Assembly (NCBI GenBank): GCA_026988315.1
Contig: JALSLJ010000086.1
Span: 1 to 40,304 of the forward strand
Origin: Sulfurimonas sp.
GTDB taxonomy: Bacteria > Campylobacterota > Campylobacteria > Campylobacterales > Sulfurimonadaceae
DNA length: 40,304 bases
Reading direction: 5' to 3'
The position numbers and the translations under genes are program-made. Numbering within the stretch: the stretch's first letter is position 1; every line of letters starts with the position of its first letter. A model generated the notes under the pieces. It was given only the letters and a program-made list of their open reading frames with translations. It was not told the origin of the DNA and ran no database searches. This document shows, in pieces, positions 23,309-40,304 of this stretch.

Positions 23309-23677
23309 TCACAATACTCCATTAACCTCATCCTCTTTAACACCAATAGGCGGTTTTTTATTACTCTGCCAAAGTGCTTCATTTGGTTTTGGACAGGCTC
23401 TGACACACTCAGAGCAATAGATGCAAAGATATGGATTATAGTGGTATTTTAAGCCCTTCTTGTTTTTCTCATTGTTTGGTGGATTTTCAACAGATACAAA
23501 CAGTATTGCCCCTGGAGGACAGGCTTTTTCACATTTTAAACAGTAAATGCACTCCTCTTGCTCATACTCGATTAGCCCTCTAAAATCTTTATCTTTTTCT
23601 ATGGGTGTAGCAGGATATTTTATTGTCTGTGGCTTCTTAAAAAGGTTTGTAAATGCTTTGAAAAATGAGTTAAACAT
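23309..23677 (-). CDS. Ech-type hydrogenase ferredoxin subunit (EchF/HycF-like)
   Basis: This 122-residue protein carries two 4Fe-4S motifs: cysteines C43, C46, C49, C53 in CIYCLKCEKACP, and C85, C88, C91, C95 in CIYCSECVRACP. This is the two-cluster polyferredoxin subunit of group 4 hydrogenases, also related to NuoI, which passes electrons between soluble ferredoxin and the small subunit. It is the last gene of the operon, starting nine bases after the large subunit stop with a GAGG ribosome site. A 107-bp gap with only a weak AAAAACT/AGTTTTT hairpin follows before the msr gene. Confidence 0.88.
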   Translation of the reverse strand: MFNSFFKAFTNLFKKPQTIKYPATPIEKDKDFRGLIEYEQEECIYCLKCEKACPPGAILFVSVENPPNNEKNKKGLKYHYNPYLCIYCSECVRACPKPNEALWQSNKKPPIGVKEDEVNGVL

Positions 23678-23686
23678 ATCCTCTTC

Positions 23687-24772: not shown

Positions 24773-24987
24773 ATCTTCTCTCTTAAATCAATTAAAAATT
24801 CTAACTCTCGTTTTAGCTCTATTTTTTTTTCTTTATTATCGGAAGTTTTTATCTTCTCTTTCATGGATACTATTTTTTTTTCTAAAGAGTTTATGAGCTT
24901 TTTTCTTTGCTTATCATTTGTGGCTTGTTCCTCTTCATCCAACTTAAAAAACTTTTCTACCTTTTTAAATAATTTCTCAATCTTCAT
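24769..24987 (-). CDS. Small coiled-coil protein inside the hydrogenase operon
   Basis: This 72-residue protein is almost wholly charged helix (KLFKKVEKFFKLDEEEQ, then long KKLINSLEKKIVSMKEKI and KKIELKRELEFLIDLR runs) and is predicted to form a coiled coil. I do not recognise a family. Its ATG overlaps the stop of the Na+/phosphate symporter (TAATG), and its 3' end overlaps the large-subunit start by four bases. It is therefore translated as part of the operon. It could be an accessory or regulatory protein of either neighbour. It has no cysteines, so it is not an electron carrier. Confidence 0.7.
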   Translation of the reverse strand: MKIEKLFKKVEKFFKLDEEEQATNDKQRKKLINSLEKKIVSMKEKIKTSDNKEKKIELKRELEFLIDLREKM

Positions 24988-26768: not shown

Positions 26769-26781
26769 GCAACTTCCTGCT

Positions 26782-27129
26782 TTATACTTTGCAAGAGCTC
26801 AGTGGCATCTGCAATGAGTCTTGATCCAGATAAAGACCTTTCTCACTGCCATCAACTTCAATCCCAAACATATCTACAAACTCACGCTGAGAAATTATCG
26901 CAGAGGGGACAATATCTACAATGGATGGTACAACATCTCCGCAAGCTATCTCGGCAAACATTATAACTATTTCATCAAATGCCTCGTACTGAGAAAATAT
27001 CCACTGTATTTCTGTTTTTTCATCTTCAAGTGCTACACCGTTGAGCGTTAAAAAATGCCATTTTTTCGCATCATAAAATTCTAAAATCTCTTCTCTGACA
27101 TTATTAAGAGTTACCTCAATTTTCTTCAT
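26782..27129 (-). CDS. NuoC-like hydrogenase subunit (EchD-like)
   Basis: This 115-residue protein matches the short 30-kDa-subunit (NuoC) relative found in group 4 hydrogenases. Recognisable parts are the opening MKKIEVTLNNVREEILEFYD, a middle strand EIQWIFSQYEAFDEIVIMFAEI, and the C-terminal block IISQREFVDMFGIEVDGSEKGLYLD, equivalent to the complex I motif for contact with the large subunit. The length fits EchD, which is far shorter than NuoC. I chose the ATG at 27129, preceded by GGAGG; the longer frame would include that site. It overlaps the small-subunit gene by 14 bases. Confidence 0.82.
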   Translation of the reverse strand: MKKIEVTLNNVREEILEFYDAKKWHFLTLNGVALEDEKTEIQWIFSQYEAFDEIVIMFAEIACGDVVPSIVDIVPSAIISQREFVDMFGIEVDGSEKGLYLDQDSLQMPLSSCKV

Positions 27130-27652
27130 CTCTCTCCTCCCCAACTCTCAATGCACTCTCTCTTCTACTAACTATACCTTCTCTGGATGTAGTATCTTTA
27201 AAAAGCTTCGATGGTTTTTCCATACTCTTTGTTTTTTTCTCTAATATCTCCAAGCCTTTCACAAGCCCATCAATTATCAATTCTGGTGAAGTTGCACATC
27301 CAGAGATGTAAACATCTACGGGAATATATCTATCTACTCCATCTTCAACATTGTACATACCTCTAAAAACTCCACCCGTACATGAACAACTCCCAACAGC
27401 AACCACAACCTTTGGTTCTGGCATCTGAATATAAAGCTCTATAAGTCTTTCTCTGCTTCTATATGTGACAGGTCCCGTTACTAAAAATATATCTGATTGC
27501 TTAGGATTTCCTGTGTTAATGATTCCAAATCTCTCTAAATCATACTTTGGAGAAAGAGAAGCAAGAATTTCTATATCACATCCATTACAACTTCCTGCAT
27601 TATAATGAAGTATCCAAGGTGATCTTTTTCTATACTTTTTTAGATTAAACAT
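27116..27652 (-). CDS. Group 4 [NiFe] hydrogenase small subunit (EchC-like)
   Basis: This 178-residue protein is the NuoB-like small subunit. It holds the proximal 4Fe-4S cluster through C22 and C25 (SCNGCDIE), C89 (VGSCSCTGG) and C119 (ISGCATSPE). It has no signal peptide and no extra cluster domain, unlike group 1 small subunits, so it works on the cytoplasmic side. The segment VAVGSCSCTGGVFRGMYN is typical of Ech/Hyc/Coo small subunits. It overlaps the upstream membrane-subunit gene by eight bases and the downstream EchD-like gene by 14, signs of tight translational coupling. Confidence 0.92.
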   Translation of the reverse strand: MFNLKKYRKRSPWILHYNAGSCNGCDIEILASLSPKYDLERFGIINTGNPKQSDIFLVTGPVTYRSRERLIELYIQMPEPKVVVAVGSCSCTGGVFRGMYNVEDGVDRYIPVDVYISGCATSPELIIDGLVKGLEILEKKTKSMEKPSKLFKDTTSREGIVSRRESALRVGEERDEEN

Positions 27653-28469
27653 AAGAGAGTCCTACAAGATTTAGCATCCCAAAAGTTAACCCTATCATTA
27701 AAACAATTTTTATAAGATGGTTTATTTTTATACGAGCTGTTGCGTTATCAACTAAGTTTACTAAAAAGAAAACACCGATAAAGAGTCCAAATCCAAGTGC
27801 TAGATTATCCCCTGCAAAGAGAGAAAGTAAAAGATAAACAAAAACATACTCTAGCCACTTTGCCATATATAAAAACTCAAAGAAGACACCACTAAACTCT
27901 ATCTCAACACCACCAACTATCTCTTGATGAGCCTCGGTCGCATCAAATGGTGACTTTTTGAGTTTGATTTGAATCACCATTAAAAAAGCTAAAAAAAGGA
28001 AAAATAGTTGGAGTATTTGCGGGGGATTGTCTCGTATGACACTTATATCAAAACTACCATTGATAAGATAAAAACCAACAGCCAACATAATCAAAATAGG
28101 CTCATACGCTATCACACTCATAAGCTCTCTATTTGCACCAATATGAGAAAAAATAGACTTAACACTAAAACCCGCAAGGATGAGAAATATGGAGGAAAGC
28201 AGATGTAAAAATATAACATAAAGTAAATTCTGTCCTAAGATAATAAAAGCAACCACAACCCACAAAGTGACAAAATGCATAATCCCTAAGATGGAATGAT
28301 AAGGGTTAATGATTAAGGCTTGTTTATCGATAAGTTTACCCATGTCATAAAATGGTTGTAAAAGAGGTGGTCCCTGACGGTTTTGCATTCGAGCACAAAC
28401 AACTCTCTCAAAACCGTAAATAAGACCACCGATGATAGGAGCGATAATAACTACAACAGCTTCAAGCAT
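27645..28469 (-). CDS. NuoH-like membrane subunit of the hydrogenase (EchB-like)
   Basis: This 274-residue protein has about eight membrane helices and the conserved NuoH loops: ARMQNRQGPPLLQPFYDMGKL near the N-terminus and KSPFDATEAHQEIVGGVEIEFSG in the middle, with acidic residues implicated in ion translocation. It anchors the soluble hydrogenase part to the membrane. I chose the ATG at 28469, which has GAGGAG nine bases upstream; a TTG at 28478 touches that site. It is the first hydrogenase gene after a two-component system on the same strand with a 38-bp gap. A TATAAT in that gap lies too close to the ribosome site to be convincing. Confidence 0.92.
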   Translation of the reverse strand: MLEAVVVIIAPIIGGLIYGFERVVCARMQNRQGPPLLQPFYDMGKLIDKQALIINPYHSILGIMHFVTLWVVVAFIILGQNLLYVIFLHLLSSIFLILAGFSVKSIFSHIGANRELMSVIAYEPILIMLAVGFYLINGSFDISVIRDNPPQILQLFFLFLAFLMVIQIKLKKSPFDATEAHQEIVGGVEIEFSGVFFEFLYMAKWLEYVFVYLLLSLFAGDNLALGFGLFIGVFFLVNLVDNATARIKINHLIKIVLMIGLTFGMLNLVGLSYV

Positions 28470-28507
28470 CTTTATCAACTCCTCAAATTAATTATAGTAT
28501 TTACTTT

Positions 28508-29197
28508 TTATACTTCTATAATATATCCTATTCCAAAAACATTTTTGATTACATCAGATGGTAATTTTTTTCGCAAATTTTTAACTAGTGTTTTTAAAGA
28601 AGAGATTTTTAAACTATCATAATCATACCAAAGATCAAATATTATATCTTCACTGTTTATAACTTTGTTTACATTAGAAAAAAGCAAAACTAATAACTCC
28701 CTCTCTTTTCTTGTTAGGAAAACCTCTTTATCGTGATATATCAATTTTTCTCTATCTTGATCCCAATAACACGAATCTTTTATATGAATAATTCTATTTG
28801 CATATGTTGTATAGTTTATGATTTCATCTACTGCAAGTTCAAGCGCTTCTTGAAGTTCACCTCTTGAGATTGGCTTTACTAAATATTTTGTAAGTTTTAA
28901 TTCTGAAGCATTTATCAATGTTTCAATATCATTCATCCCTGTTAGCATTATTGCTCTTATCGAATGGTTCTCTTTTCGTATAGCTCTTAAAAAGTCAATT
29001 CCACTCTGAGTAGGGAGCTGTATATCTACAAGTAATATATCTATTTTATGTTTTTTATAAATTTCATAAGCATCTTCAGCATTTGCAGCCTCATAAATAA
29101 CATCAAAAGACCTTTGAAGGAAACTAGCATAATTTGCTCTTACCTTGTCATCGTCTTCTATATATAAAATACTATACTTAAATTTATTTTTATCCAT
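28508..29197 (-). CDS. OmpR-type response regulator
   Basis: This 229-residue protein has an N-terminal receiver with the acidic pocket IEDDDK, the phosphoacceptor aspartate in LLVDIQLP (D58 from this start), and the conserved threonine and lysine in IMLTGMND and YLVKPISRGEL. The C-terminal winged helix (about 145-229: VFLTRKERELLVLL to SSLKTLVKNLRKKLPSD to VFGIGYIIEV) binds DNA. I chose the ATG at 29197 because the AAGGA site adjoins the alternative TTG at 29206. It starts five bases after the kinase stop and precedes the hydrogenase genes by 38 bp, so it is a likely, unproven regulator of that operon. Confidence 0.93.
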   Translation of the reverse strand: MDKNKFKYSILYIEDDDKVRANYASFLQRSFDVIYEAANAEDAYEIYKKHKIDILLVDIQLPTQSGIDFLRAIRKENHSIRAIMLTGMNDIETLINASELKLTKYLVKPISRGELQEALELAVDEIINYTTYANRIIHIKDSCYWDQDREKLIYHDKEVFLTRKERELLVLLFSNVNKVINSEDIIFDLWYDYDSLKISSLKTLVKNLRKKLPSDVIKNVFGIGYIIEV

Positions 29198-29202
29198 ATT
29201 AC

Positions 29203-29919
29203 TCAATCCTTAGAAAATTCTATTGTAAAACACACGCCATTATCGACATTTTTCACATATAATAAAGCATGTAGCTTTTCTTGAGTAAGTTTTTTTGCCA
29301 TATTCAGTCCAAGACCTGTTCCCTCTGAATGATGTTTAGTGGTAAATGCAGGCTCAAAAATTTTCTGCATCACACTTTTACTCATGCCACCGCCATTATC
29401 ACATACTTTTATAAATAAAGTATTAGATTCAGTAAATGCTTTTAAATGTATCTTCGGTTGATAAACATTTCTACTAATCATGGCATCCTTTGCGTTGTTA
29501 ATCAAAGTTATGACTATCTGCTTCAGCAGTTGCTCATCTCCAAAAAACTCTAAAGATTTTTCAATATCAATGATAATCTCTATATTATGTTCTTTTAGAG
29601 TATAAAAAGTGACTTCTAGGGCTTTTTTTATCAACTCATCTAAGAAGTAAGATTTTGCTTTAGCTTCACCAATATAGCCACGAAAATCATCTACACTTTC
29701 AGACATATTTTTTATAATATTTTCTATCTCTAGTAGTTGTTTTGTTAAGGTTTTATCTTCAACTCCAATTTCATAAAGTCTGTTGTCGATTGCACCAACT
29801 ATAGAATTAATCTGTGATAATGGTTGTCTCCACTGATGAGCAATAGAAGCAAAAACCTCTTGTAATTCAGATGAATTTTTCAGCTCTTTACCTAGCTTAT
29901 TCGTAACATTTGACATCAT
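29203..29919 (-). CDS. Cytosolic histidine kinase without a sensor domain
   Basis: This 238-residue protein is almost only a kinase core. The H-box is SIAHQWRQPLSQINSIVGA, a variant common in Campylobacterota kinases. The ATP-binding domain has an N-box (LINNAKDAM), G1 (VCDNGGGMSKS) and G2 (TKHHSEGTGLGLNMAKK). There is no membrane helix and only about 20 residues precede the H-box region, so it must be switched by another protein or by direct contact with a partner. It is paired with the response regulator that follows. It is divergent from the coiled-coil gene at 30038, with an AT-rich 118-bp shared promoter region. Confidence 0.92.
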   Translation of the reverse strand: MMSNVTNKLGKELKNSSELQEVFASIAHQWRQPLSQINSIVGAIDNRLYEIGVEDKTLTKQLLEIENIIKNMSESVDDFRGYIGEAKAKSYFLDELIKKALEVTFYTLKEHNIEIIIDIEKSLEFFGDEQLLKQIVITLINNAKDAMISRNVYQPKIHLKAFTESNTLFIKVCDNGGGMSKSVMQKIFEPAFTTKHHSEGTGLGLNMAKKLTQEKLHALLYVKNVDNGVCFTIEFSKD

Positions 29920-29998
29920 TTAATCCACATAATCAATATTATAAAAAATATTATATCAAATAATATATAAATTAATTAACTTGTTAACTAAAACTTTA

Positions 29999-30004
29999 TA
30001 TAAT
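29999..30004 (+). promoter_or_regulatory. Probable -10 box (TATAAT) for the GTPase gene block
   Basis: TATAAT lies 34 bp before the ATG at 30038, with a GAGGG ribosome site at 30027-30031. The 118-bp gap to the divergent kinase also holds an AATATT repeat pair and TTAATTAA/GTTAAC motifs, all in very AT-rich DNA. Confidence 0.45.
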
Positions 30005-30037
30005 CTTTAAAATTATATATCTGTATGAGGGCAAAGA

Positions 30038-30610
30038 ATGAATAAAGAGAATAAAACTAAAGAAAATGACATATCTCAACTCGGAAATGTAGATCAAATT
30101 CGGGAAATTCTTTTTGGTTCACAATCTCGTGAACTTAAAGAAAAATTTGAAAAACTTGAAAGCTCTATAAAATCGATTCATGATGAGATGCGTAAAAAAA
30201 TCGAACAATCTCAAAATGATTTCAACCTAAGAATAGACAATGAACTAGAGACACTCTCAAGAAAAATTAAAAATATCACTACTCAGCAGCAAGATGAATT
30301 TGCAGATGTACGAGATAGCGCACTAAAACAAGAAAAGCGTATCCAAACCGCTATGGATATTATGGAAGAAGAGCTCAATGCAAAAAGAGAACAACTTCAA
30401 AAACAGCAAATTGAGAGTAATACAAATATCAGAAACGAGATGGATGCACTAAAAGATGAAGTGTTAAATACACTCAACAATAAAATGTCTGAGATGAATG
30501 GGATAAAACTCTCCCGTGATGACGCGGCTGAAATCCTCATGGAAGCAGCAATGGCAATGAAAGGGACTCAAATCAACCAACAATTAGCAATAGCTCAAGA
30601 AGAGAAATAG
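30038..30610 (+). CDS. Coiled-coil protein, first gene of the GTPase block
   Basis: This 190-residue soluble protein is mostly a long coiled coil (about residues 35-155), with a short ordered head, NVDQIREILFGSQSRELKEKFEKLE, and a helical tail, SRDDAAEILMEAAMAMKG. In larger single-chain OmpA-like proteins of other bacteria I recall a comparable block (ending LL/LFG then a helix) lying directly before the region that here begins the next gene. This gene may therefore be the detached N-terminal part of that protein. It lies 10 bp upstream of the OmpA-like gene. It probably serves as a cytoplasmic scaffold or oligomerisation arm; no enzyme motif is visible. Confidence 0.75.
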   Translation: MNKENKTKENDISQLGNVDQIREILFGSQSRELKEKFEKLESSIKSIHDEMRKKIEQSQNDFNLRIDNELETLSRKIKNITTQQQDEFADVRDSALKQEKRIQTAMDIMEEELNAKREQLQKQQIESNTNIRNEMDALKDEVLNTLNNKMSEMNGIKLSRDDAAEILMEAAMAMKGTQINQQLAIAQEEK

Positions 30611-30620
30611 ACACTAAATA

Positions 30621-32258
30621 ATGTCACATGAAAAACAGCATATCAATGAAGAAGAGGCACTGCAAGAAGCCATCTCACCAATAGTCAACAGGCTCATTGA
30701 TAAAAACTTTGAAAATTCTGGTGACAAGATAGCTTCACAAATGGCGCCACTAATCGGTGGAGCGATAAGGGAACAAATAAAATCTCAAAAAGATGATGTA
30801 GTTGATGCTCTTTACCCTGTTATGGGTAATATGATTAGCAAGTTTGTTACAAAAAGTCTTGAAGAGCTACTAAACAAAATAAACACTCAAATACAAAATG
30901 GGCTCTCAATTGAAACAATTAAGCGAAAAATAAAAGCAAAATTAAAAGGAGTTAGTGAGAGCGAACTCCTCATACAAGAGAACAATCAAACGAAGATAAA
31001 AGCAGTTTTACTTATCCATAAAGAGAGTGGAACTCTTTTATCTCAGGTAGAAAACGAGCAAAGCCAACTCAACGATCCAGATATGCTAGCCTCTATGATG
31101 ACTGCTATTAGAAGTTTTGTAAATGATTGGGCTAGCAATAATGCTACCCATAGTGAACTTGGCGAGATTGAGTATGGTGGCAATAAAATAATTATAGAAG
31201 CGAGTGGATACAGTTACCTATCTGTTATCACAGAAGGAGCAATCTCTCCCCATATCTACAAAGAGATTAGAGAAGTTTTAGAAGATATAGTTCTTAATTA
31301 TGCAGATGAGATAAAAAAATTCAATGGTAATTTTGATAAATTACCAAAAGATGCAATAAAAGAAAAATTACAAACACTTATAAATAATGAAACACAACCG
31401 CAATCCTCATCAAAAAAGATGCATCCTCTTATCTTCATCATCCCTTTTTTACTTATAGGCTATCTTTGTTATGCTTTTTATCAAGATTATGTCGATTATA
31501 GAATCCAAAGTGAGATATATAAGAGATTAGAACAGGTCCCAGCCCTCTCCATTTACAAAATCAACATAGATGTTAAAGATAAAATCGCCACTATCGATGG
31601 AAAAGTTCCATTCAAATATCATAAAAATTTGCTTCAAGAGAATATACAAGAGATACAAGAGATACAAGAGATAAAAAACAACATACTTGTTACACCTACT
31701 CTAACAGACCCACTACAAGTGAGTTCAAATATCGCTTACTTTCTTGCTGGACTTAATCAAGATAAACATACAAATCTAAGCTATAGCTTTGATTATAATA
31801 CATTAACTCTTTATGGCATAGTAAAAAATACCACTATAAAAAATCAGATACTTCAAGAGTTACAAAAGATTAAAGGGATACAAAACATAAATTATGACAA
31901 TGTAACAATAGCTACTTTAACTATTGATGCAAATATATATTTTACAAAAGGTTCAAGTCAATTAAGTGCTCAAGCACAAACTATTCTTCTTGATATTATC
32001 TCAAAGATTAATAACTTTAACTCTAAAGATACTATTGTACTAAACTCTTATAGTGATATGATTGGTGATCAAATTATAAATGAGAAACTAGCAAAAAAAC
32101 GACTAAAAGATATAAGTGATTTTTTTAAAGATATGGGAAACCTTCAAAATAAAATCGGCACGCAAATACACTTCTCAGCACCTCCAAATATTGACCTAAA
32201 AAAAGAAGCTCATAAAGCTAGATGTGTAAATATCTCTTTAAAGAATGAAGAAAAATAA
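30621..32258 (+). CDS. Inner-membrane protein with BON-like and OmpA-like periplasmic domains
   Basis: This 545-residue protein has a large cytoplasmic half and one membrane helix (residues 268-287, MHPLIFIIPFLLIGYLCYAF). Its periplasmic half has two BON-like modules (about 293-425) and a C-terminal OmpA-like domain (about 430-540, IYFTKGSSQLS and SYSDMIGDQIINEKLAKKRL) that probably grips peptidoglycan. The cytoplasmic part includes MAPLIGGAIREQIKSQKDDV, a block I associate with OmpA/MotB-domain proteins encoded beside small GTPases, and a region starting KIKAVLLIHKESGTLLSQV. It therefore spans from the cytoplasm to the cell wall and could be the anchor of the GTPase system. Its stop overlaps the GTPase ATG by one base. 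A three-unit IQE repeat lies in the first BON-like region. Confidence 0.82.
   Translation: MSHEKQHINEEEALQEAISPIVNRLIDKNFENSGDKIASQMAPLIGGAIREQIKSQKDDVVDALYPVMGNMISKFVTKSLEELLNKINTQIQNGLSIETIKRKIKAKLKGVSESELLIQENNQTKIKAVLLIHKESGTLLSQVENEQSQLNDPDMLASMMTAIRSFVNDWASNNATHSELGEIEYGGNKIIIEASGYSYLSVITEGAISPHIYKEIREVLEDIVLNYADEIKKFNGNFDKLPKDAIKEKLQTLINNETQPQSSSKKMHPLIFIIPFLLIGYLCYAFYQDYVDYRIQSEIYKRLEQVPALSIYKINIDVKDKIATIDGKVPFKYHKNLLQENIQEIQEIQEIKNNILVTPTLTDPLQVSSNIAYFLAGLNQDKHTNLSYSFDYNTLTLYGIVKNTTIKNQILQELQKIKGIQNINYDNVTIATLTIDANIYFTKGSSQLSAQAQTILLDIISKINNFNSKDTIVLNSYSDMIGDQIINEKLAKKRLKDISDFFKDMGNLQNKIGTQIHFSAPPNIDLKKEAHKARCVNISLKNEEK
31644..31670 (+). repeat. Three tandem 9-bp repeats in the OmpA-like gene
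   Basis: ATACAAGAG occurs three times in a row and encodes IQE-IQE-IQE in the periplasmic BON-like region. Being in frame, copy-number change would lengthen or shorten the protein by three residues per unit without a frameshift. Confidence 0.85.
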
Positions 32259-32749
32259 TGTTCACATATAAGATAGTTCTAGTTGGAAACTTTGGAGTTG
32301 GTAAAACAAGTCTCATAAAAAGATTTGTTGAGAACTCATTTAGCGAAGAGTACCTTAGTACAATTGGGGTCAGCATATCCAAAAAAACTATAGATAATGC
32401 AACTATAATGATATGGGATATTGAGGGTCATACAGAGTTTAAGCCAATCTTTAAACAGTATCTTCTTGGCTCAAAAGGATTCATAATAGTAGCCGATTTA
32501 CTTAGAGAAGAGACTATAGATGCTATCAAAAACCATATAGAGCTTTGTCACAATGTCGTAAAAGATGCTCCAATTTGCATAGCTCTCAATAAAAGTGATA
32601 TGCCACATAAGTTAGATGAACATAATCTTCAAGCTATAAAATCACTCTCACCTACCATTATAGAAGTTGTAAAAACATCAGCAAAAAGTGGGGATGCTGT
32701 TGAGAATATATTTTTTAAGCTAAATCAAAAAATAACAAGTCAGTTATAA
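32258..32749 (+). CDS. Ras/Rab-like small GTPase
   Basis: This 163-residue protein has the full set of Ras-superfamily motifs. These are the P-loop GNFGVGKTS (residues 10-18), a switch I threonine in EEYLSTIGVSIS, the G3 motif WDIEGHTEF, the base motif NKSD, and the G5 motif TSAKSG. In G3 the position of the Ras catalytic glutamine is histidine, so intrinsic hydrolysis may be slow and depend on a partner. There is no C-terminal lipid site. Bacterial relatives (MglA, Rup GTPases) control polarity, motility or development with Roadblock partners; a Roadblock-like gene lies 2 kb away on the other strand. The start overlaps the OmpA-like gene stop by one base. Confidence 0.93.
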   Translation: MFTYKIVLVGNFGVGKTSLIKRFVENSFSEEYLSTIGVSISKKTIDNATIMIWDIEGHTEFKPIFKQYLLGSKGFIIVADLLREETIDAIKNHIELCHNVVKDAPICIALNKSDMPHKLDEHNLQAIKSLSPTIIEVVKTSAKSGDAVENIFFKLNQKITSQL

Positions 32750-32751
32750 AT

Positions 32752-33945
32752 ATGCAACAAAATCTACTTCACTTACTTTGTAAAAAAAACAACATCTCTT
32801 ATATAATTTTCGATAAACACTTTAGAGTTGTTGAGGCACACCTGATAAAAATAAGCATAGGTTCAGATATTCGAGATTTTTTATGGGAACTTGTAGGCTT
32901 AGAGGAAGATATTTTAAAAATTTACTCAACACAAAAACCTATAGAATTGCCAATGGTACTCAAAGGTACAAACTATTATGATTTGGAGCTAGAGACTTTT
33001 TTTTCAGATACAAAAGAGGAACTCTTCATTGCGTATATGCAAAAAAAATCAAAACAAACAAACCAATATGCAAATGTCATTAAAGAGATAAACAAAAAAA
33101 CACTCATATATGATACAAGCCAAGAGAAAAAAGATGGACTCTATTTTAAACAAATAAGCAAGCGTCTTATCACTTTTCATGTTGATTTAGATGGTATCAT
33201 CACACAGGTAAATGATGTTTGTACACATTTTTTTAACATCGAAAAAGAAAAAATTATAGGACAACATTTTTCATACTTTTTTCATACTCAAAAATCACAA
33301 CTGAATCAACATAGTAATATTTTTAGTGCTACAAATTCCCTTGATAAAAACATCTTTTTTCATGCCGATATAATACCCATAACAAATAATACTAATAAAA
33401 TAATAGAAAATATCATAGTGGCTCAAGATATAACCTATCTTAAACAGATAGAAAAAGAGTTGGAGTATGCAAGTGAGCATGATACTCTAACAGGTCTTGC
33501 AAATAGAAATCATCTTTTAGTATCACTTGATAAATATCTTAACGAGAAAAAAAACTTATACCTTTGTTTAGTAGATATTGATGGTTTTTCTATAATAAAT
33601 GAAGAGTATGGCTCACATGCAGGTGATATGCTCCTCAAACACCTAACATCAATACTCAAGAGTATTATTGATCCAAAAGATAGTTTATATAGGCTACACA
33701 AAGATACCTTTGCCATACTCTTTGAAGCAGAAAAAAATAAAAACTACATAGAAGATTTACTTGAAAAACTCAAAGAAAGCTTTCTCTCAAACCCTTTGAT
33801 ATATAGTGCAGATGACACCGTAGAATTTTCTTGTAGCATACTTATCTTATGGGATAAAAATGAACTTCATACATCTAAAGAGATCTTAAATCAATCTCAA
33901 AAAGAGATGCAAAAGCTCAAAATAGATAAAAAATTATCTCGGTAA
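32752..33945 (+). CDS. PAS protein with a degenerate GGDEF domain
   Basis: This 397-residue protein has an N-terminal PAS-like segment (about 10-100), a clear second PAS domain (about 140-235, FHVDLDGIITQVNDVCTHFF), and a C-terminal GGDEF-fold domain from about 245 (ASEHDTLTGLANRNHLL). The substrate part of the domain reads DIDGFSIINEEYGSHAGDMLL, but the signature site is RLHKDTFAILF instead of RxGGDEFAxxL. It therefore should not make cyclic di-GMP and may bind nucleotide or act as a scaffold. No membrane helix or EAL domain is present. It begins two bases after the GTPase stop and its 3' end overlaps the convergent SixA-like gene by 12 bases. Confidence 0.88.
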   Translation: MQQNLLHLLCKKNNISYIIFDKHFRVVEAHLIKISIGSDIRDFLWELVGLEEDILKIYSTQKPIELPMVLKGTNYYDLELETFFSDTKEELFIAYMQKKSKQTNQYANVIKEINKKTLIYDTSQEKKDGLYFKQISKRLITFHVDLDGIITQVNDVCTHFFNIEKEKIIGQHFSYFFHTQKSQLNQHSNIFSATNSLDKNIFFHADIIPITNNTNKIIENIIVAQDITYLKQIEKELEYASEHDTLTGLANRNHLLVSLDKYLNEKKNLYLCLVDIDGFSIINEEYGSHAGDMLLKHLTSILKSIIDPKDSLYRLHKDTFAILFEAEKNKNYIEDLLEKLKESFLSNPLIYSADDTVEFSCSILILWDKNELHTSKEILNQSQKEMQKLKIDKKLSR

Positions 33946-34464
33946 GGTATTTTTTATCTGTTTTGGCATATAGTATTTAAACTGATTTGGATAGATGAAA
34001 AATTCTACCTTAGCTTTTTTGGACTCTAACTCTATCCATTTATCTATCTCAAGACTAAGAGAGACTACACCCATTGTTGGTAATTTTGCTATATTTTCAT
34101 CACTAAACCAGTTTGACAACTCTATGAGATGCGGATTATGAGCTACAACAAAGATAGAGTTATCTTCATCTTCTTGAGCCATTATGATATTTAATATATC
34201 TTCATATGATGAAGAATAAAGCTCTTCAAAGAAGTATTTACGCCCCTCAAAACCAATTTTTTGAGAAAGTTCTATAGCAGTTTCTTGAGCTCTTAAAGCA
34301 CAACTAGAGAGAATAAGATCTGGTGATATATCTTGTAATGCTAAGTAAGAACCAATAGTGTTAATCTCCTTTAGCCCTTTGCCCCTCAAAGATCTTTCAA
34401 AATCACTAATGCCTTGAGAAAAATCTTCAGCTTTTGCACTTCTAATTAGGTAAATTTTTTTCAT
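33934..34464 (-). CDS. SixA-like histidine phosphatase lacking its catalytic histidine
   Basis: This 176-residue protein matches the short SixA branch of the histidine phosphatase superfamily, whose members remove phosphate from HPt-domain histidines. The opening MKKIYLIRSAKAEDF should read L-I-R-H-A/G, but the nucleophile histidine is serine (AGT codon). The other features are present: arginine and SS in ILSSCALRAQETA, a glutamate in EELYSS, and the second histidine in VVAHNPHL. It may bind phosphohistidine without cleaving it, or be inactive. It is the last gene of a four-gene minus-strand block and lies 17 bp after the Roadblock-like gene. Confidence 0.85.
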   Translation of the reverse strand: MKKIYLIRSAKAEDFSQGISDFERSLRGKGLKEINTIGSYLALQDISPDLILSSCALRAQETAIELSQKIGFEGRKYFFEELYSSSYEDILNIIMAQEDEDNSIFVVAHNPHLIELSNWFSDENIAKLPTMGVVSLSLEIDKWIELESKKAKVEFFIYPNQFKYYMPKQIKNTLPR

Positions 34465-34481
34465 TATTTAGCTTAAATCAT

Positions 34482-34871
34482 TTACAAATTTGCTAATTCA
34501 TCAGAGATAGCTTTAGATGATTTATTTATAATCATCTTTGCAAGTGCTATATTTCCATCATCACGAAATATACAAAATATATCTGCTTTTGCATTAGAAT
34601 CTTCTGCAACTGAGCCAGCACTTTTCATCAAAAATACATGCCCATCCTCTGTTTTTGTTTCCAAAGACGACACATCACTAAAGCCAACATCCAAAGACGC
34701 TTCATTCACTTGACGAAAAGAATCATTAAAGATTGCAGAAGCATATCCAACATCAGTTCCAGTATTTTCTTCATCTATATATAAAGTCTCACCTGAGTAG
34801 TTTAAAACCGCTGAACCTAAATAACCATTTACACTGCGAAGTTTTCTCATTTGTGCATCAAAATCAATCAT
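34482..34871 (-). CDS. Roadblock/LC7-like protein
   Basis: This 129-residue soluble protein has the alpha-beta-beta pattern of the Roadblock/LC7 fold. A helix opens it (MIDFDAQMRKLRSVNG), followed by the strand GSAVLNYSGETLYI, a long helix-containing middle, a GHVFLMKSAG strand, an ADIFCIFRDDGNIALAKMII strand-helix, and a final helix. Roadblock proteins such as MglB act as GTPase-activating or scaffold partners of MglA-type GTPases. The presence of a Ras-like GTPase in the same cluster supports the call, which is otherwise a fold-level judgement. It lies 12 bp after the PAS gene. Confidence 0.72.
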   Translation of the reverse strand: MIDFDAQMRKLRSVNGYLGSAVLNYSGETLYIDEENTGTDVGYASAIFNDSFRQVNEASLDVGFSDVSSLETKTEDGHVFLMKSAGSVAEDSNAKADIFCIFRDDGNIALAKMIINKSSKAISDELANL

Positions 34872-34883
34872 CTTATTTTTCCT

Positions 34884-35405
34884 TTATTTATTTAAATTTT
34901 TCATATATTCGTTAAAAGCGCTACTCTGCTCTATATTGTTGTCTTTTAAAAATTCATCAAAAGCTTTTTGAGAAGAGGCTTCCCCCTCATTTTTTTCAAG
35001 CTCAAGTAGCTGTCCATAAAGTACAGCAATCGTTTTTTTTGCTTCATTAGTAATACACTTGCGTGTTGACATATAGTTCCTAAACGACCCATCTGGATTT
35101 TTTGCCATTTTTACTGTTGCTAATACCCAATAGTATCCACCATCAGCACATAAGTTTTTCACATATGCCACAACATCTTTTCCCTCTTTTATAGTTTTCC
35201 AAAGATACCTAAAGATAACTTTTGGCATATCTGGATGACGCAGTATTGCATGTGGTTTCTCAAGTAATGATGCTTGTGAATATCCAGATATTTTCATAAA
35301 GATTGGGTTTGTGTAAGTGATGTTACCCTCTGCGTTAGATTTTGATACAATCAAATCTACACTTTTCACCTCATGTTCCACATCTATTGGTTCTGGTCTT
35401 TGCAT
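34884..35405 (-). CDS. Aer-like PAS protein
   Basis: This 173-residue protein is a single PAS domain (about residues 15-125) with a helical tail. The motifs ITYTNPIFMKISGYS, AILRHPDMPKVIFRYLW and YWVLATVKM are those of the Aer-type PAS domain, which in Escherichia coli binds FAD and senses redox or oxygen state. There is no HAMP, receptor or kinase domain attached, so the signal must be passed by protein contact, perhaps to the hybrid kinase encoded 13 bp upstream. FAD binding is inferred from family likeness. Confidence 0.88.
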   Translation of the reverse strand: MQRPEPIDVEHEVKSVDLIVSKSNAEGNITYTNPIFMKISGYSQASLLEKPHAILRHPDMPKVIFRYLWKTIKEGKDVVAYVKNLCADGGYYWVLATVKMAKNPDGSFRNYMSTRKCITNEAKKTIAVLYGQLLELEKNEGEASSQKAFDEFLKDNNIEQSSAFNEYMKNLNK

Positions 35406-35418
35406 TTAATCTCCCTTT

Positions 35419-37446
35419 TTAATGATTTAGAGCTTTTCTTATCTCGCTCACTTTAAATGGCTTACCAACATAAAGATTAAAATCTTTTCCTTGTGTTTTT
35501 AGATCCAAAGCATCTCCCGTTGTTGAGACTGCGAATATCGCACTCAAGCCATTATCTTGTTCAAACTCTCTTAGATTTCTCATAACCTCTATGCCATTCA
35601 TTAGAGGCATTTTATTATCAATAAATACAACACTATATGGGGCTTGTTTTTTATGAGAATCTATAAGCATCTCTAAGGCAATCTTACCATTTAATGCAAC
35701 TTCAAGCTTACAATACTCATTTTCTAAAATTTTCTCTATCAGCATAACACTTGTTTTATCATCATCAACAATCAACACTTTAGGAACTTTTTTTATATTT
35801 ATGAACTTATAAAGCTCAGAAGCAAAGTATCCATTCTGAGTAATAATATCCCATTCGTCTGGCATATCATTTTTTTCAATAGACAAAAATTCCTCTTCCA
35901 CAATCAAGACTTTCATAGATTTTTCATTAATCAATGACATTGTTTCTTTATCTATTTTACTTTGAAAAATTATTAGGTTTGTTGTATCCTTAGGAACTTC
36001 TGACAGAGAAGAGACTGCTATGATATTGTCTTTTTTTCCACCCATACCTATTATATATTTTGCAATATTCATTAAGCAAAATTTATTTTTTGCATTCATT
36101 AAAACAGCGATTTTTAGATTATTATTTGAGATTGTTTCAAAACATTTCTCATCTTGTATTATTTGTATTGGAATATCAAAATAAAAAGTTGTTCCTTTTT
36201 CAATTTCACTATTTAGTTGTAGTTTTCCTCCCAAATCACGAACATACTCTGCGCATATAAACAAACCTAATCCAGTTCCGCCATAAGTTTGAGATATAGA
36301 ATCATCCACCTGTTTAAAAGCTTCAAATATCTCATCTTGCTTCTCTCTTGGAATTCCAATTCCTTCATCTTTAATGGAAATACTAACGCTTTTCTTATCA
36401 GAATTATACTTTAAAGAGAACTCTATATTTTTTCCATATGGTGTAAATTTATAAGCGTTACTTAAAAGATTCATAATAGTACGCTTGAGTTTTAACTCAT
36501 CCACTGCTATCTTTTTTGGTAAAAGAGGGTCTATGTAAATATTGAAACCTATCTGTTTTGAGTACATATTTGACATAAACATATCTGTTATCTTAGAGAA
36601 AAAGCCAACTGTCTCAACATCTACAACAGAAGACTCTTGACTCTCTTTATCTAGTTTAATCTTATCAAGCATTGTTGTTGTTAATTCATTTATAAAACCT
36701 GCACTCTCTTTTGCATTTTGCAAATACTCTTTAAGTCTTTTATCGCTAATTTGATCTTCTAAAAGTTCTAAAAAACCATAAAGCGTATTTGCTGGAGTTC
36801 TGATATCATGAACAAAATTTGCCATCATATGTATAGTATTATCAAAATTCTGTTTATATTTTTTATTTTCAGACTTTCTCTCTACAAAATTACCATCTTC
36901 TATGCTCGGCTGAATTATTTTTTTTGCATGAGATGTGTGCATTTTATATAGTGTATTTATCAAAAGTGGTGATATTGTTTCAAGTATTTTTATATCTTTT
37001 TCTGTAAATTTTTTGATTTTTTTGATTGATGTATATGCAGTAATAATTCCAACTAATTCATCGTTATCCATTAGCGGGAAAATTATTTTTGATTTTATTT
37101 TTATCTTATCTGGATTGTCGATGGAAGCAACATACTCTTTTTCACTAGCGATATAATTATAAATACCACTTGTTTTACTCATAAAACATTTATATATAAT
37201 ACTCTCTTTTAAATCTAACGACAGTTCTCTGTTTTGTAAGTTTTTTTCTTCTCTTATAAGACGAAGTTCTTGCTTATCATAAAACCATAATGATGAATAT
37301 TCAGAATTTAAAATATTTGCTACAAACTCTTCTACAAGAGTATTTATCTCGATATTATTTTTTGCTAATTCAACACTCTTACTAAGAGTATCTATTTTTT
37401 TTTGCGACAATGTTACATCAAATTTTTTATTTTTCAATTTATTCAC
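35419..37446 (-). CDS. Hybrid histidine kinase: GAF, kinase core, receiver
   Basis: This 675-residue cytosolic protein has a GAF-like sensor domain (about 20-165). It has a kinase core with H213 in NFVHDIRTPANTLYG and an ATP domain with LLSNAYKFTPYG, KDEGIGIPREKQD and GTGLGLF. A poorly conserved receiver-like region (about 440-550) lacks the acidic pocket, and a good receiver (556-675) follows with IVDDDK and the phosphoacceptor D610 in FIDNKMP. It has no DNA-binding domain, so its output is phosphotransfer or protein contact. The start is GTG with a weak ribosome site. It heads a minus-strand block with the PAS, Roadblock-like and SixA-like genes, spaced 12-17 bp apart. Confidence 0.92.
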   Translation of the reverse strand: MNKLKNKKFDVTLSQKKIDTLSKSVELAKNNIEINTLVEEFVANILNSEYSSLWFYDKQELRLIREEKNLQNRELSLDLKESIIYKCFMSKTSGIYNYIASEKEYVASIDNPDKIKIKSKIIFPLMDNDELVGIITAYTSIKKIKKFTEKDIKILETISPLLINTLYKMHTSHAKKIIQPSIEDGNFVERKSENKKYKQNFDNTIHMMANFVHDIRTPANTLYGFLELLEDQISDKRLKEYLQNAKESAGFINELTTTMLDKIKLDKESQESSVVDVETVGFFSKITDMFMSNMYSKQIGFNIYIDPLLPKKIAVDELKLKRTIMNLLSNAYKFTPYGKNIEFSLKYNSDKKSVSISIKDEGIGIPREKQDEIFEAFKQVDDSISQTYGGTGLGLFICAEYVRDLGGKLQLNSEIEKGTTFYFDIPIQIIQDEKCFETISNNNLKIAVLMNAKNKFCLMNIAKYIIGMGGKKDNIIAVSSLSEVPKDTTNLIIFQSKIDKETMSLINEKSMKVLIVEEEFLSIEKNDMPDEWDIITQNGYFASELYKFINIKKVPKVLIVDDDKTSVMLIEKILENEYCKLEVALNGKIALEMLIDSHKKQAPYSVVFIDNKMPLMNGIEVMRNLREFEQDNGLSAIFAVSTTGDALDLKTQGKDFNLYVGKPFKVSEIRKALNH

Positions 37447-37549
37447 TTTACTTATTAATATTTATCGATATTGTACAAAAAAGAAGTGAACAACTAGTGA
37501 TATTTTGTTGAAAAAGTAAAACTATCATTAGGCAATACTTAAAAGTTGT

Positions 37550-39316
37550 TTATTTAACTATCACACCAACAACAAGCAAAACCATAGCCACAACCCCAAC
37601 ACCACCAATTGCCTTTTCATAAACCTCAGGAATATCAAAATAATACATACTAAGTTGCAGTTCATCTTTTTCACCACAATGGTACTCTTTGACTCTATGG
37701 GCTTTTTTAAATACTAATGTTGCAAATAGTAGTGGTACTACAGCTATTAAAACAAATGGTACAATAATCTCTGAATTACTTAATAACTCCATCTCCAAAC
37801 TTATGTATATCCCTATCACCAAGAATATCAAAAGTAAAAATGATGGTATAGTATATAGCTTAGGAATCTCTTGATGTTCTTCTTTAGATGAGTTTACATC
37901 TTTTGCAAAAAGTTTTGTAACAACTTTAAAATATAACAGCGTTAAAAATACACTTCCAAGTGCTATAAATATTAATGCTAAAACATAGATAGGATTGGCT
38001 GTAATCTCATTTGCTATAGACTCGATAGCCATAAACTTTGCTATAAATGCTCCAAAGGGTGGTAAAGAGAGTGAAGCAAAACCGATAACTATAAAAAACA
38101 CAACAAGAGGCGAGTGATTAATAAGACCATTTATGTCATCTATATACTTAAGATGATTTACTTTTTCTAAAATTCCAGCTTGGAGAAATAAAAGTGCTTT
38201 TGAGATGGCATGAAATACTATGAGAACTAAACAAGCCTTAGTAGCTTCCTCGCTTCCTATGGTTGCTAAAGCCATCATAAGCCCTAAAAGTGCAATGGTT
38301 GAGAGACCAAGTATCTCTTTGAAATAGTCCTTACTTAGAGCTAGAAGTGAAGCAGAGAAAAAAACGAATGTACCTATAAGAGTTATGGTAACAGAGACAA
38401 ATCCACTCATAGCGGGTGCAAGTTTTAACATCAAATACGGAGCTATTTTCACCATAGTTGCACTGTGGAGTATCGCACTTACTGGTGTTGGAGCTACCAT
38501 CGCACCAAGTAGCCATTTGTCAAATGGGATGCTCGCACCTTTAACAAAGGCTGCTATTGCTAAAAGAGAGATAGGCAAAAGATATGACTCGTCAATGTTT
38601 GATATAAGGATGTCAAAATAAAGCGTGTCATATTGAACTATAGAGACAATTAACGCAAGTAAGATAGCTACTCCACCTATTTGGTTCATCCATAAGGCTT
38701 TAAGTGAATTTTGCACAGAAACTTCATCTTCGCGGTAGGCAATAAGCAGGTACGAACAAAGTGTTGTTAACTCAAATAGCAAAAAGAAAATCTCGATGTT
38801 GTTCGTTGAGACAATAAAATTCATAATACTTAAAAAGAAAAATAGCATTGCGATAAATTTATTTTTTTTGCATCTGCTAAAATTTTCCTCTTCTATATAC
38901 CCTAGTGCGTAGATGATAATCACACCGCCAACTATATTTATGATAAGATACATAACAGATGAAATCTTATCCACCAAAATATCATTGGATATAAGTGTTG
39001 GTGAGAGATAGATAACTATAGAGTAGAGGATGATTTGAACTAAAGCAAAAAGCATCACAAGTTTATGTTTTTTTATAAACCCTTGCCATAAAAAGTAGAG
39101 AAGTAACACACTATCAATAAAAAGAAATATATAGTGAGATTGGTGAGGTATAGATATCTCAAGCGTATTAGGAAGTGAAAAAAAGTTTACAACACTCAAA
39201 CCCATCAATATAAAAACAGATAAAATAGCCACTACATTTCTAACCATAACTCCTCCAACTCGTACTAAAAGAGCAAAAAACAAGGGTGAGGCTATCAATA
39301 CAATAGGTGTTAACAT
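37550..39316 (-). CDS. NuoL/HyfB-like antiporter subunit of a hydrogenase (EchA-like)
   Basis: This 588-residue protein has some fourteen membrane helices and the proton-conducting antiporter motifs: FELTTLCSYLLIAY, the lysine-bearing AFVKGASIPFDKWLLGAMVAPTPVSAILHSATMVK, and HAISKALLFLQAGI. This is the Mrp/complex I antiporter family as found in EchA/HyfB. A basic C-terminal segment, YHCGEKDELQLS, resembles the HyfB/EchA tail. It begins ten bases after the group-1-type large subunit gene and lies 9 kb from the other Ech-like membrane subunit, with the signalling module between. It is either the detached A subunit or a partner of the upstream enzyme. Confidence 0.9.
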   Translation of the reverse strand: MLTPIVLIASPLFFALLVRVGGVMVRNVVAILSVFILMGLSVVNFFSLPNTLEISIPHQSHYIFLFIDSVLLLYFLWQGFIKKHKLVMLFALVQIILYSIVIYLSPTLISNDILVDKISSVMYLIINIVGGVIIIYALGYIEEENFSRCKKNKFIAMLFFFLSIMNFIVSTNNIEIFFLLFELTTLCSYLLIAYREDEVSVQNSLKALWMNQIGGVAILLALIVSIVQYDTLYFDILISNIDESYLLPISLLAIAAFVKGASIPFDKWLLGAMVAPTPVSAILHSATMVKIAPYLMLKLAPAMSGFVSVTITLIGTFVFFSASLLALSKDYFKEILGLSTIALLGLMMALATIGSEEATKACLVLIVFHAISKALLFLQAGILEKVNHLKYIDDINGLINHSPLVVFFIVIGFASLSLPPFGAFIAKFMAIESIANEITANPIYVLALIFIALGSVFLTLLYFKVVTKLFAKDVNSSKEEHQEIPKLYTIPSFLLLIFLVIGIYISLEMELLSNSEIIVPFVLIAVVPLLFATLVFKKAHRVKEYHCGEKDELQLSMYYFDIPEVYEKAIGGVGVVAMVLLVVGVIVK

Positions 39317-39326
39317 CTAAACTCTC

Positions 39327-40304
39327 TTAAATTACTTTTATTTTGTACTTACTTAACTCTTTTTTATTTGTGCCTATGACATGAACTGCACAAGCAAGAC
39401 AAGGGTCAAATGAGTGTATAATTTTTAAAACTTCAAGTGGTTTGGATGTGTCTTTTATCTTTACCCCTATCAAAGCCTCTTCATAAGCTCCCCTAATTCC
39501 ATCATGATTTTTAGGAGTTGCATTCCATGTTGTTGGTGCAATGACTGAAAAATTTTCTATTTTTTTGTCTTTTATGCTTACAAAGTGAGATAAAACACCA
39601 CGAGGCACTTCAAGAAATGTTTTCCCTTTTGCATCCTTGTTTAAAGAGTCAAAATCAAACCTTGTCCAAGTATCTACATCATAGTATTTTATATTTTGGA
39701 TTAGCCTTGAGACAAGCTTAAAAATATACTCACATATATAACTACTCTCTATTGCCCTCGCCGCATTTCTCCCAACTGTAGTAGATAAGTCCATAAGTTC
39801 TAAATCACTAGCATCCAAAAACTCATCTACAAAAGATTTTATAAGCTTATTCTCTTTTTTGTAGCTTACTAAAACTCTCGCCAAAGGTCCCGTTTCCATA
39901 ACTTTTCCATCGTATCTTGGAGCTTTTATCCACGAGTATTTATCATCGTTTTTTTCAGTTCTAAGAGTTCCATCTTCGTTTAAATCTGTATAATCTACTT
40001 CATTATCCTCAGCATCACCCTTATACCAAGCACGGTCTATCTCTTCACTTATCTTAGACTCATCAAACTCTTCTATATTCTCAAAATCATGTCCATAAAT
40101 AACGCCATTACAAAAGAGTCTCTGCTCATTCTCAAACTCATAGCCACCAACACATAAGAAGTTACCACTTGCACGACCTAATCCAGCTTTTATCTCATCT
40201 CTATAAGCTACACAAAGCAATTTAGCATCTGGCAAATAAGCACGGTCAATAAACTCTTTTGCATCTTTCATGATAAAAAGGTAATCATTAAGTCTTTGAG
40301 GGTT
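39327..40304 (-). CDS. hydB: Group-1-type [NiFe] hydrogenase large subunit (5' end cut by window edge)
   Basis: The minus frame is open to the right edge, giving the C-terminal 325 residues of a protein usually near 570. It shows YSWIKAPRYDGKVMETGPLARVLV, VPRGVLSHFVSIKDKKIENF, PTTWNATPKNHDGIRGAYEEALIG and the metal motif DPCLACAVH, all group 1 uptake hydrogenase features. After the final histidine comes a 17-residue tail, VIGTNKKELSKYKIKVI, which a maturation endopeptidase should remove. It differs strongly from the group 4 large subunit at 23.7-24.8 kb. The next gene, ten bases on, is a NuoL-like subunit rather than the usual cytochrome b (HydC). The methionine at 40271 is internal, not the start. 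Confidence 0.93.
   Translation of the reverse strand, partial: NPQRLNDYLFIMKDAKEFIDRAYLPDAKLLCVAYRDEIKAGLGRASGNFLCVGGYEFENEQRLFCNGVIYGHDFENIEEFDESKISEEIDRAWYKGDAEDNEVDYTDLNEDGTLRTEKNDDKYSWIKAPRYDGKVMETGPLARVLVSYKKENKLIKSFVDEFLDASDLELMDLSTTVGRNAARAIESSYICEYIFKLVSRLIQNIKYYDVDTWTRFDFDSLNKDAKGKTFLEVPRGVLSHFVSIKDKKIENFSVIAPTTWNATPKNHDGIRGAYEEALIGVKIKDTSKPLEVLKIIHSFDPCLACAVHVIGTNKKELSKYKIKVI

What the first reader, a model, noticed from the sequence alone, without database searches (positions are those of the whole stretch)
30038..37446. Compact GTPase-Roadblock-kinase module of two convergent four-gene blocks
Eight genes with gaps of at most 17 bp, or small overlaps, encode a coiled-coil protein, a wall-spanning BON/OmpA-like anchor, a Ras-like GTPase, a dead-GGDEF PAS protein, a hybrid kinase, an Aer-like PAS protein, a Roadblock-like protein and a SixA-like protein. 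Small GTPase plus Roadblock is the core of MglA/MglB-type polarity systems. Joining it to an envelope anchor, redox-type PAS sensing and phosphorelay parts is, as far as I know, not a described system.
Basis: partly seen in the sequence, partly recalled or inferred. Interest (0 to 1): 0.85.

Follow-up and report, generated by a model that had tools for sequence, protein, structure and literature searches.

The report
Wall-anchored Ras-switch module beside Roadblock phosphorelay
A Sulfurimonas genome carries a known but unstudied bacterial Ras-like switch module, whose wall anchor is here predicted to contain a longin domain (a fold that holds Rab-type switches in our own cells), next to a separate Campylobacterota signalling block with a real Roadblock protein; the pairing is real and arose at least twice, but it is not the MglA/MglB polarity system.

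Summary
Observation confirmed: eight tightly packed genes in two convergent quartets. Block 1 (coiled coil, OmpA anchor, GTPase, PAS-GGDEF) is not undescribed: it is the Group 1 Rup neighbourhood reported in 2014 (PMC4316618), seen here in 24 further Campylobacterota loci and on Nostoc, Rhizobium and Mesorhizobium plasmids. New here: the anchor's cytoplasmic head is predicted to be a longin domain (VIA Z 13.6), so the GTPase's likely docking platform is fused to the envelope anchor. Block 2 (hybrid kinase, PAS, Roadblock, SixA-like) is a separate conserved Campylobacterota module. Its Roadblock fold is real (MglB, E 2e-7), but 13 of 18 genomes carrying it show no single-domain Ras-type GTPase, so it is not an obligate MglB. 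Still, Rup and block 2 are neighbours in two separate GTPase clades, and in both the GTPase's output is not an active diguanylate cyclase (7/7 dead GGDEF; 5/5 histidine kinases) against 17/18 intact otherwise. Most likely function: a wall-coupled Rup-longin switch whose output was rerouted from c-di-GMP to phosphotransfer. A new variant of a known kind; the longin anchor is the most interesting part. No interaction was tested.

The parts
30038..30610 (+). Coiled-coil cytoplasmic protein of the Rup module, with conserved N-terminal motif NVDQIREILFG
   Evidence: invariant R22, F26, G27 in 9 aligned sequences; homologues directly before the anchor gene in the loci (in L024 seen on the same contig as L083) and in Nostoc, Rhizobium and Mesorhizobium.
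30621..32258 (+). Envelope anchor: helical N-terminus, predicted longin domain (aa ~122-259), transmembrane helix (aa ~268-288), periplasmic BON and OmpA domains
   Evidence: Pfam BON/OmpA; AlphaFold2 head model, pLDDT 70-90 over most of aa 121-250; Foldseek Sec22b longin E 3e-4; VIA Z 13.6 Vamp7, 13.5 Sec22b; 2 of 15 members weakly match Fuz_longin_1. Transmembrane helix read from the sequence.
32258..32749 (+). Group 1 Rup small GTPase; G3 motif WDIEGH (no catalytic Gln)
   Evidence: Ras E 1e-27; best PDB relatives Rab1/Rab35, E 3e-36 with the family profile; no Gln at the G3 position in 33 of 34 family members.
32752..33945 (+). Output protein of the Rup module: N-terminal PAS-like region, PAS, degenerate GGDEF (HKDTF; RxxD inhibitory site also lost)
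33934..34464 (-). SixA-like histidine-phosphatase protein with catalytic His replaced by Ser (IRSAK)
   Evidence: TIGR00249 E 9e-15; alignment of 62 sequences: 53 His, 8 other, 1 gap.
34482..34871 (-). Roadblock/LC7-fold protein
   Evidence: AlphaFold2 pLDDT 89; Foldseek MglB E 2e-7; VIA Z 16.7 Asgard Roadblock, 15.1 MglB.
34884..35405 (-). Stand-alone PAS protein (Aer/CetB-like by recall only), constant neighbour of Roadblock
   Evidence: PAS_3 E 8e-14; directly upstream of Roadblock in 64/78 loci.
35419..37446 (-). Soluble hybrid kinase GAF-HisKA-HATPase-REC with H-box, N-box and receiver Asp present
   Evidence: residues read; a kinase homologue lies within 1.5 kb in 51 of the 64 PAS-Roadblock loci.
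29203..29919 (-). Divergent histidine kinase of the same cassette (AHQWRQPL H-box)
   Evidence: Next to the coiled-coil gene in all nine Sulfurimonas-type loci that reach that far (L021, L023-L026, L083, L085, L088, L149; seven distinct contigs).
28508..29206 (-). OmpR-type response regulator paired with that kinase

Best explanation
The cassette is a Group 1 Rup signalling module joined, in this lineage, to a separate Roadblock phosphorelay module. In block 1 the Rup GTPase is proposed to dock at the inner membrane on the longin head of the anchor protein, whose BON and OmpA parts hold the cell wall. The state of the wall or envelope would be passed through the anchor to the GTPase and on to the output protein, with the coiled-coil protein as scaffold. 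In most relatives that output is a diguanylate cyclase, an HD-GYP phosphodiesterase, a histidine kinase or a nucleotide cyclase. In the window's clade the output's GGDEF is dead, so it would act as a binding protein that passes the GTPase state to the neighbouring hybrid kinase, whose activity is further tuned by the PAS-Roadblock pair and the catalytically degraded SixA-like protein. Shown: gene order, conservation, fold predictions, motif losses, two separate origins of the linkage. Inferred: longin-GTPase binding, the direction of signalling, and the rerouting from c-di-GMP to phosphotransfer.
For: The published Group 1 Rup neighbourhood matches part for part. Coiled coil, anchor head and GTPase are contiguous in 24 further Campylobacterota loci and on Nostoc, Rhizobium and Mesorhizobium plasmids, where the output, read in two of the three, is a hybrid kinase (Nostoc) or a nucleotide cyclase (Mesorhizobium). 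The anchor head has a longin fold with weak independent sequence support from Fuz_longin_1 and Robl_LC7. G3 Gln absent in 33/34. Linkage of Rup to the Roadblock block needs at least two gains on the GTPase tree. In both linked clades the GTPase's partner output is not an active cyclase: 7/7 dead GGDEF in Sulfurimonas, 5/5 histidine kinases in Sulfurovum, against 17/18 intact GGDEF among the remaining GGDEF outputs. The Sulfurovum clusters add HPt-like proteins beside the GTPase, as a phosphorelay needs. The whole ten-gene cassette lies at a new place in the window, between two hydrogenase genes that are adjacent in 9/9 relatives.
Against: No interaction, nucleotide state or phenotype is known for any Rup protein in the papers I could search. 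The longin head model rests on 8 sequences and mean pLDDT 62. Sequence profiles do not link the head to Roadblock or to any PDB longin. The Roadblock block mostly lives without a Rup GTPase. The dead GGDEF within Sulfurimonas is one inherited event, so the count of 7 is not seven trials. L115 keeps a second, intact GGDEF output next to its anchor gene.
Confidence: 0.5

Rival explanations
1. MglA/MglB-type polarity switch: the Roadblock protein is the GAP of this GTPase and the pair sets a cell pole.
For: True Roadblock fold, close in structure to MglB and Asgard Roadblocks; the GTPase gene lies 1.7 kb away; the linkage arose at least twice.
Against: The GTPase is Rup, not MglA (Asp kept in G3, Rab-like). 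13 of 18 genomes with the Roadblock show no single-domain Ras-type GTPase in the searches run. The four other genomes with both keep them unlinked. Roadblock is instead tied to PAS (64/78 loci).
Confidence: 0.12
2. Two unrelated signalling operons that merely abut; the shared neighbourhood is hitch-hiking with no joint function.
For: Block 1 and block 2 are each conserved on their own, are transcribed convergently so share no promoter, and most genomes have only one of them.
Against: Linkage in two separate clades with different layouts, non-cyclase outputs in both, HPt-like proteins beside the GTPase in Sulfurovum.
Confidence: 0.28
3. The PAS-Roadblock pair is the sensor of the hybrid kinase alone (redox or energy sensing), with Roadblock as a GTPase-free adaptor; the Rup module is a separate wall sensor that later came to feed the same kinase.
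For: PAS 12-41 bp from Roadblock in 64/78 loci, kinase and SixA alongside in 44; no Ras-type small GTPase detected in 13/18 such genomes.
Against: Does not explain the repeated linkage to Rup unless the modules share an output.
Confidence: 0.1

Closest known systems
Group 1 Rup small-GTPase neighbourhood (Wuichet and Sogaard-Andersen 2014, PMC4316618)
   Same: Coiled-coil protein, conserved-domain + TM + OmpA protein, Rup GTPase without the G3 Gln, and an output protein with an N-terminal region.
   Different: Anchor head here assigned a longin fold; BON domain before OmpA; output GGDEF degenerate; the output's candidate conserved Gln is Lys here; flanked by a kinase/regulator pair and by the PAS-Roadblock-kinase-SixA block, not mentioned in the 2014 text I read.
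MglA/MglB polarity module
   Same: Ras-superfamily GTPase and a Roadblock-fold protein in one locus, with two-component parts nearby.
   Different: GTPase is Rup (WDIEG, Rab-like), Roadblock lies in a convergent operon with PAS, and most genomes with this Roadblock have no Ras-type small GTPase detected.
Actinobacterial conservon (CvnA-D)
   Same: Histidine kinase, Roadblock protein and small GTPase in one locus.
   Different: Conservon has an MglA-type GTPase and CvnC; here a Rup GTPase, a wall anchor and a hybrid receiver; gene order and families differ.
Eukaryotic and Asgard longin/Roadblock platforms (TRAPP, Mon1-Ccz1, SRX, Ragulator)
   Same: Rab-like GTPase predicted to pair with a longin-fold platform held at a membrane.
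   Different: Bacterial, fused to a peptidoglycan-binding OmpA domain through one transmembrane helix; binding untested.

Membership tests
Group 1 Rup GTPase module | Ras-like single-domain GTPase lacking the G3 catalytic Gln | tested here: met
   WDIEGH in the window; 33/34 family members without Gln; Ras E 1e-27.
Group 1 Rup GTPase module | Neighbourhood of coiled-coil gene, conserved-domain/TM/OmpA gene and signal output gene | tested here: met
   definition.
Group 1 Rup GTPase module | Invariant Gln in the N-terminal region of the output protein | tested here: inconclusive
   The paper's column is only in a figure. The best candidate (Q three residues before the conserved N of the QxRNE motif) is Lys in the window and several relatives, Gln in most others.
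Group 1 Rup GTPase module | No MglB homologue nearby by the paper's criterion (Pfam Robl_LC7/BLAST) | tested here: met
   No Robl_LC7 match in the window proteins or the whole genome; a Roadblock is visible only by fold.
Group 1 Rup GTPase module | Place inside the Rup clade of a GTPase tree with MglA rows | not tested
   No MglA or reference Rup sequences were placed in the tree.
MglA/MglB | Thr in place of the G3 Asp of the GTPase (MglA Thr78, PMC3000849 abstract) | tested here: not met
   Asp54 (WDIEG) in the window and Asp in all 34 family members.
MglA/MglB | Roadblock partner travels with the GTPase | tested here: not met
   13/18 Roadblock genomes without a detected single-domain Ras-type GTPase; 15/15 Rup loci without Roadblock beside them.
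Roadblock/LC7 | Alpha-beta-beta-alpha-beta-beta-beta-alpha Roadblock fold | tested here: met
   Predicted model: topology; VIA Z 16.7, rmsd 1.9 over 119 residues to 9jue; Z 15.1 to MglB.
Roadblock/LC7 | Match above the Pfam PF03259 cut-off | tested here: inconclusive
   Best member E 0.13, below cut-off; profile to PDB Roadblock E 0.34-1.2. The Pfam model is known to miss members (PMC4316618).
Longin domain (anchor head) | Longin fold | tested here: met
   Predicted model only: Z 13.6 (rmsd 3.2, 126 aligned) Vamp7, 13.5 (2.8, 125) Sec22b; Foldseek E 3e-4.
Longin domain (anchor head) | Sequence match to a longin family | tested here: inconclusive
   Fuz_longin_1 E 0.015 in 2/15 members, Robl_LC7 E 0.019 in 1/15; none in PDB.
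SixA phosphohistidine phosphatase | Catalytic His of the RHG/RHA motif | tested here: not met
   IRSAK in the window; His in 53 of 61 sequences with a residue there.
Diguanylate cyclase | GG[DE]EF active site | tested here: not met
   HKDTF; all seven linked Sulfurimonas outputs degenerate.
Conservon | CvnA kinase, CvnB Roadblock, CvnC and CvnD (MglA-type GTPase) as one four-gene set | tested here: not met
   Families and order differ (definition).

The most novel reading that the evidence does not exclude
Bacteria from Campylobacterota to Cyanobacteria and Alphaproteobacteria encode, in one operon, a Rab-like GTPase and a wall-anchored longin-domain protein that work as a switch-and-platform pair like Rab-TRAPP or SR-beta/SRX. 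In Sulfurimonas and Sulfurovum this pair has been coupled to a Roadblock-PAS phosphorelay, so that a GTPase state drives histidine phosphotransfer instead of c-di-GMP.
Probability: 0.3. Interest if true: 0.85.

Novelty: new variant of a known kind. Interest (0 to 1): 0.6.

Why it matters
The 2014 paper that named the Rup GTPases proposes them as the source of eukaryotic Ras-superfamily members and knew of no experimental characterisation and no regulator. A longin head in their constant neighbour gives a concrete partner to test, and would place a Rab-like GTPase/longin pair in bacteria, where the papers read here credit longins mainly to Asgard archaea and eukaryotes. The repeated coupling to a Roadblock phosphorelay, with loss of the cyclase output, is a natural experiment in rewiring a signalling switch.

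Tried and rejected
MglA/MglB reading: tested by motif, PDB relatives and genome-wide presence, rejected as membership. Roadblock as a chance small ORF: rejected (54-87% identity across genera in the main family, fold confident). Sequence-profile link between anchor head and Roadblock: none. Anchor-head relatives in viral contigs: none. PDB sequence searches for head and Roadblock: no significant relevant hit. PF00025 as an MglA detector: it did not ring in the Thermus control, so its negatives were not relied on alone; most of its other hits are long ORFs of translation-factor size. PF08477 and PF00071 gave no hit in an ORF under 315 aa in the 13 genomes; two hits lie in longer Roc-type ORFs. 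An MglA too distant for all these models is not excluded. Promoter and terminator scan: no signal above shuffles. Papers naming Rup modules: only the 2014 one found in the library. G025 anchor hit: only a C-terminal OmpA match, discarded.

Full report
OBSERVATION. The eight ORFs exist as described, with gaps of 17 bp or less, and their domain assignments hold. The two quartets overlap by 12 bp at their 3' ends. The window lies in a 2.19 Mb genome whose nearest named relatives are Sulfurimonas MAGs.

BLOCK 1 IS A DESCRIBED NEIGHBOURHOOD. Wuichet and Sogaard-Andersen (PMC4316618) describe Group 1 Rup GTPases encoded with a coiled-coil protein, a conserved-domain protein that is often followed by a transmembrane helix and OmpA, and an output protein, typically a diguanylate cyclase/phosphodiesterase fusion or a histidine kinase. 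They also report that Group 1 lacks the G3 Gln. The window matches on the gene set and on the GTPase motif. Nine loci from a first set of 60 genomes and fifteen from a phylum-wide set of 397 carry coiled coil, anchor head and GTPase side by side. In L024 the coiled-coil ORF was hidden by a spurious ORF but is seen on the same contig. Three plasmid loci in Nostoc, Rhizobium and Mesorhizobium do the same. Outputs vary: intact GGDEF, HD-GYP (L027, L028), histidine kinase (Sulfurovum), hybrid kinase (Nostoc), nucleotide cyclase (Mesorhizobium). So the system is known as a gene neighbourhood, and it was functionally unstudied in the papers I could search.

THE ANCHOR HEAD IS PREDICTED TO BE A LONGIN DOMAIN. 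An AlphaFold2 model of anchor residues 1-262 from eight sequences is poor for the first 80 residues, but pLDDT is 70-90 over most of 121-250. Foldseek against solved structures returns Sec22b longin first (E 3e-4), followed by Roadblock, adaptor-sigma and Ykt6 longin chains. VIA gives Z 13.6 for Vamp7 longin, 13.5 for Sec22b, 12.0 for a TRAPP complex chain, 11.9 for an Asgard longin, 11.1 for an SRP-receptor chain and 10.4 for Mon1-Ccz1. Sequence support is weak but points the same way: of 24,736 Pfam models, Fuz_longin_1 (2 of 15 members) and Robl_LC7 (1 of 15) are among the few sub-threshold hits. Longin domains often bind small GTPases of the Rab and Arf kind (PMC3521125, PMC10933270), and the window's GTPase family has Rab proteins as its best solved relatives. 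The inference, not shown, is that the anchor carries the GTPase's own platform. This head is conserved to Nostoc at 40% identity.

THE ROADBLOCK PROTEIN IS REAL BUT BELONGS TO ANOTHER MODULE. Its model (58 sequences, pLDDT 89) matches MglB (Foldseek E 2e-7) and an Asgard Roadblock (VIA Z 16.7). Of 78 loci with this protein, 64 have the PAS gene 12-41 bp upstream, and 44 have PAS, SixA-like and kinase all together. Only 11 have a Rup GTPase within the fetched stretch, though many stretches are cut by contig ends. In the phylum sample 18 genomes have the Roadblock, 17 the anchor head and 5 both (Fisher p 5e-4, not corrected for ancestry). Thirteen of the 18 show no single-domain Ras-type GTPase in four searches of differing reach. 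The Roadblock therefore does not depend on Rup.

YET THE TWO MODULES MEET REPEATEDLY. On a tree of 34 GTPases, the rows linked to the Roadblock block form two groups, a Sulfurimonas clade of seven and a Sulfurovum clade of six, and well-supported branches force at least two changes. One of the seven (G030) is linked by inference from two contig ends. The layouts differ: in Sulfurimonas the blocks converge, while in Sulfurovum the GTPase sits 3-8 kb away, mostly with an HPt-like protein and a kinase output. In both, the output paired with the GTPase is not an active cyclase: seven of seven Sulfurimonas GGDEF sites are degenerate and five of five readable Sulfurovum outputs are histidine kinases. 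Of 18 other GGDEF outputs, 17 keep GG[DE]EF. That count includes L115's second output, which lies next to its anchor gene in a linked locus. These are few independent events, so this is a pattern worth testing, not proof.

SIXA AND REGULATORS. The SixA-like protein has Ser for the catalytic His; 8 of 61 sequences have S, D or N there while 53 keep His. It may be a pseudo-phosphatase in the window. A kinase/OmpR-type regulator pair upstream (28508-29919) is conserved beside the coiled-coil gene in the Sulfurimonas loci that reach that far and is part of the cassette.

MOBILITY. The ten-gene cassette (28508-37446) lies between two hydrogenase-operon genes that are adjacent in 9 of 9 relatives, whereas in G022 and G027 it lies between a hydrolase-like gene and a typA-like GTPase gene. 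It has moved as a block, unless the contig is chimeric.

VERDICT. Observation confirmed; interpretation partly supported. Group 1 Rup module with a predicted longin anchor, joined to a Campylobacterota PAS-Roadblock phosphorelay. New variant of a known kind.

Noticed in passing
window 28508-37446 within 23309-40271: The ten-gene cassette interrupts a group-4-like NiFe hydrogenase operon between an antiporter-like subunit (37550-39316) and a NuoH-like subunit (27645-28478), which are adjacent in 9/9 other Sulfurimonas genomes with this hydrogenase. Movement as a block or a contig join.
   Followed up: partly
window 24987-26768: A Na/phosphate-cotransporter-like gene sits inside the same hydrogenase operon, also in L181 and L183.
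   Followed up: no
L091:13254-13568, L093:14852-15175, L115:14789-15100: Small HPt-like proteins (HALKG motif; Pfam Hpt E 1e-4, under cut-off) sit just upstream of a Rup GTPase in Sulfurovum clusters.
   Followed up: partly
L152:2850-3723, L151:9977-10875, L153:4274-4663: A second, more distant Roadblock-like family without the PAS partner, often in tandem pairs or beside a distant hybrid kinase.
   Followed up: no
L026:13132-15198: G018 has the Rup module and the convergent hybrid kinase but no PAS, Roadblock or SixA-like genes, and an intact GGDEF: perhaps the state before gain or after loss.
   Followed up: partly
L149:13880-14243: Anchor gene split into two ORFs in this MAG, a real frameshift or a sequencing error.
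   Followed up: no
G376:C103:20541, G177:C25:17929: Roc-type GTPase domains in ORFs of 343 and 663 aa, possibly Roco-like.
   Followed up: no
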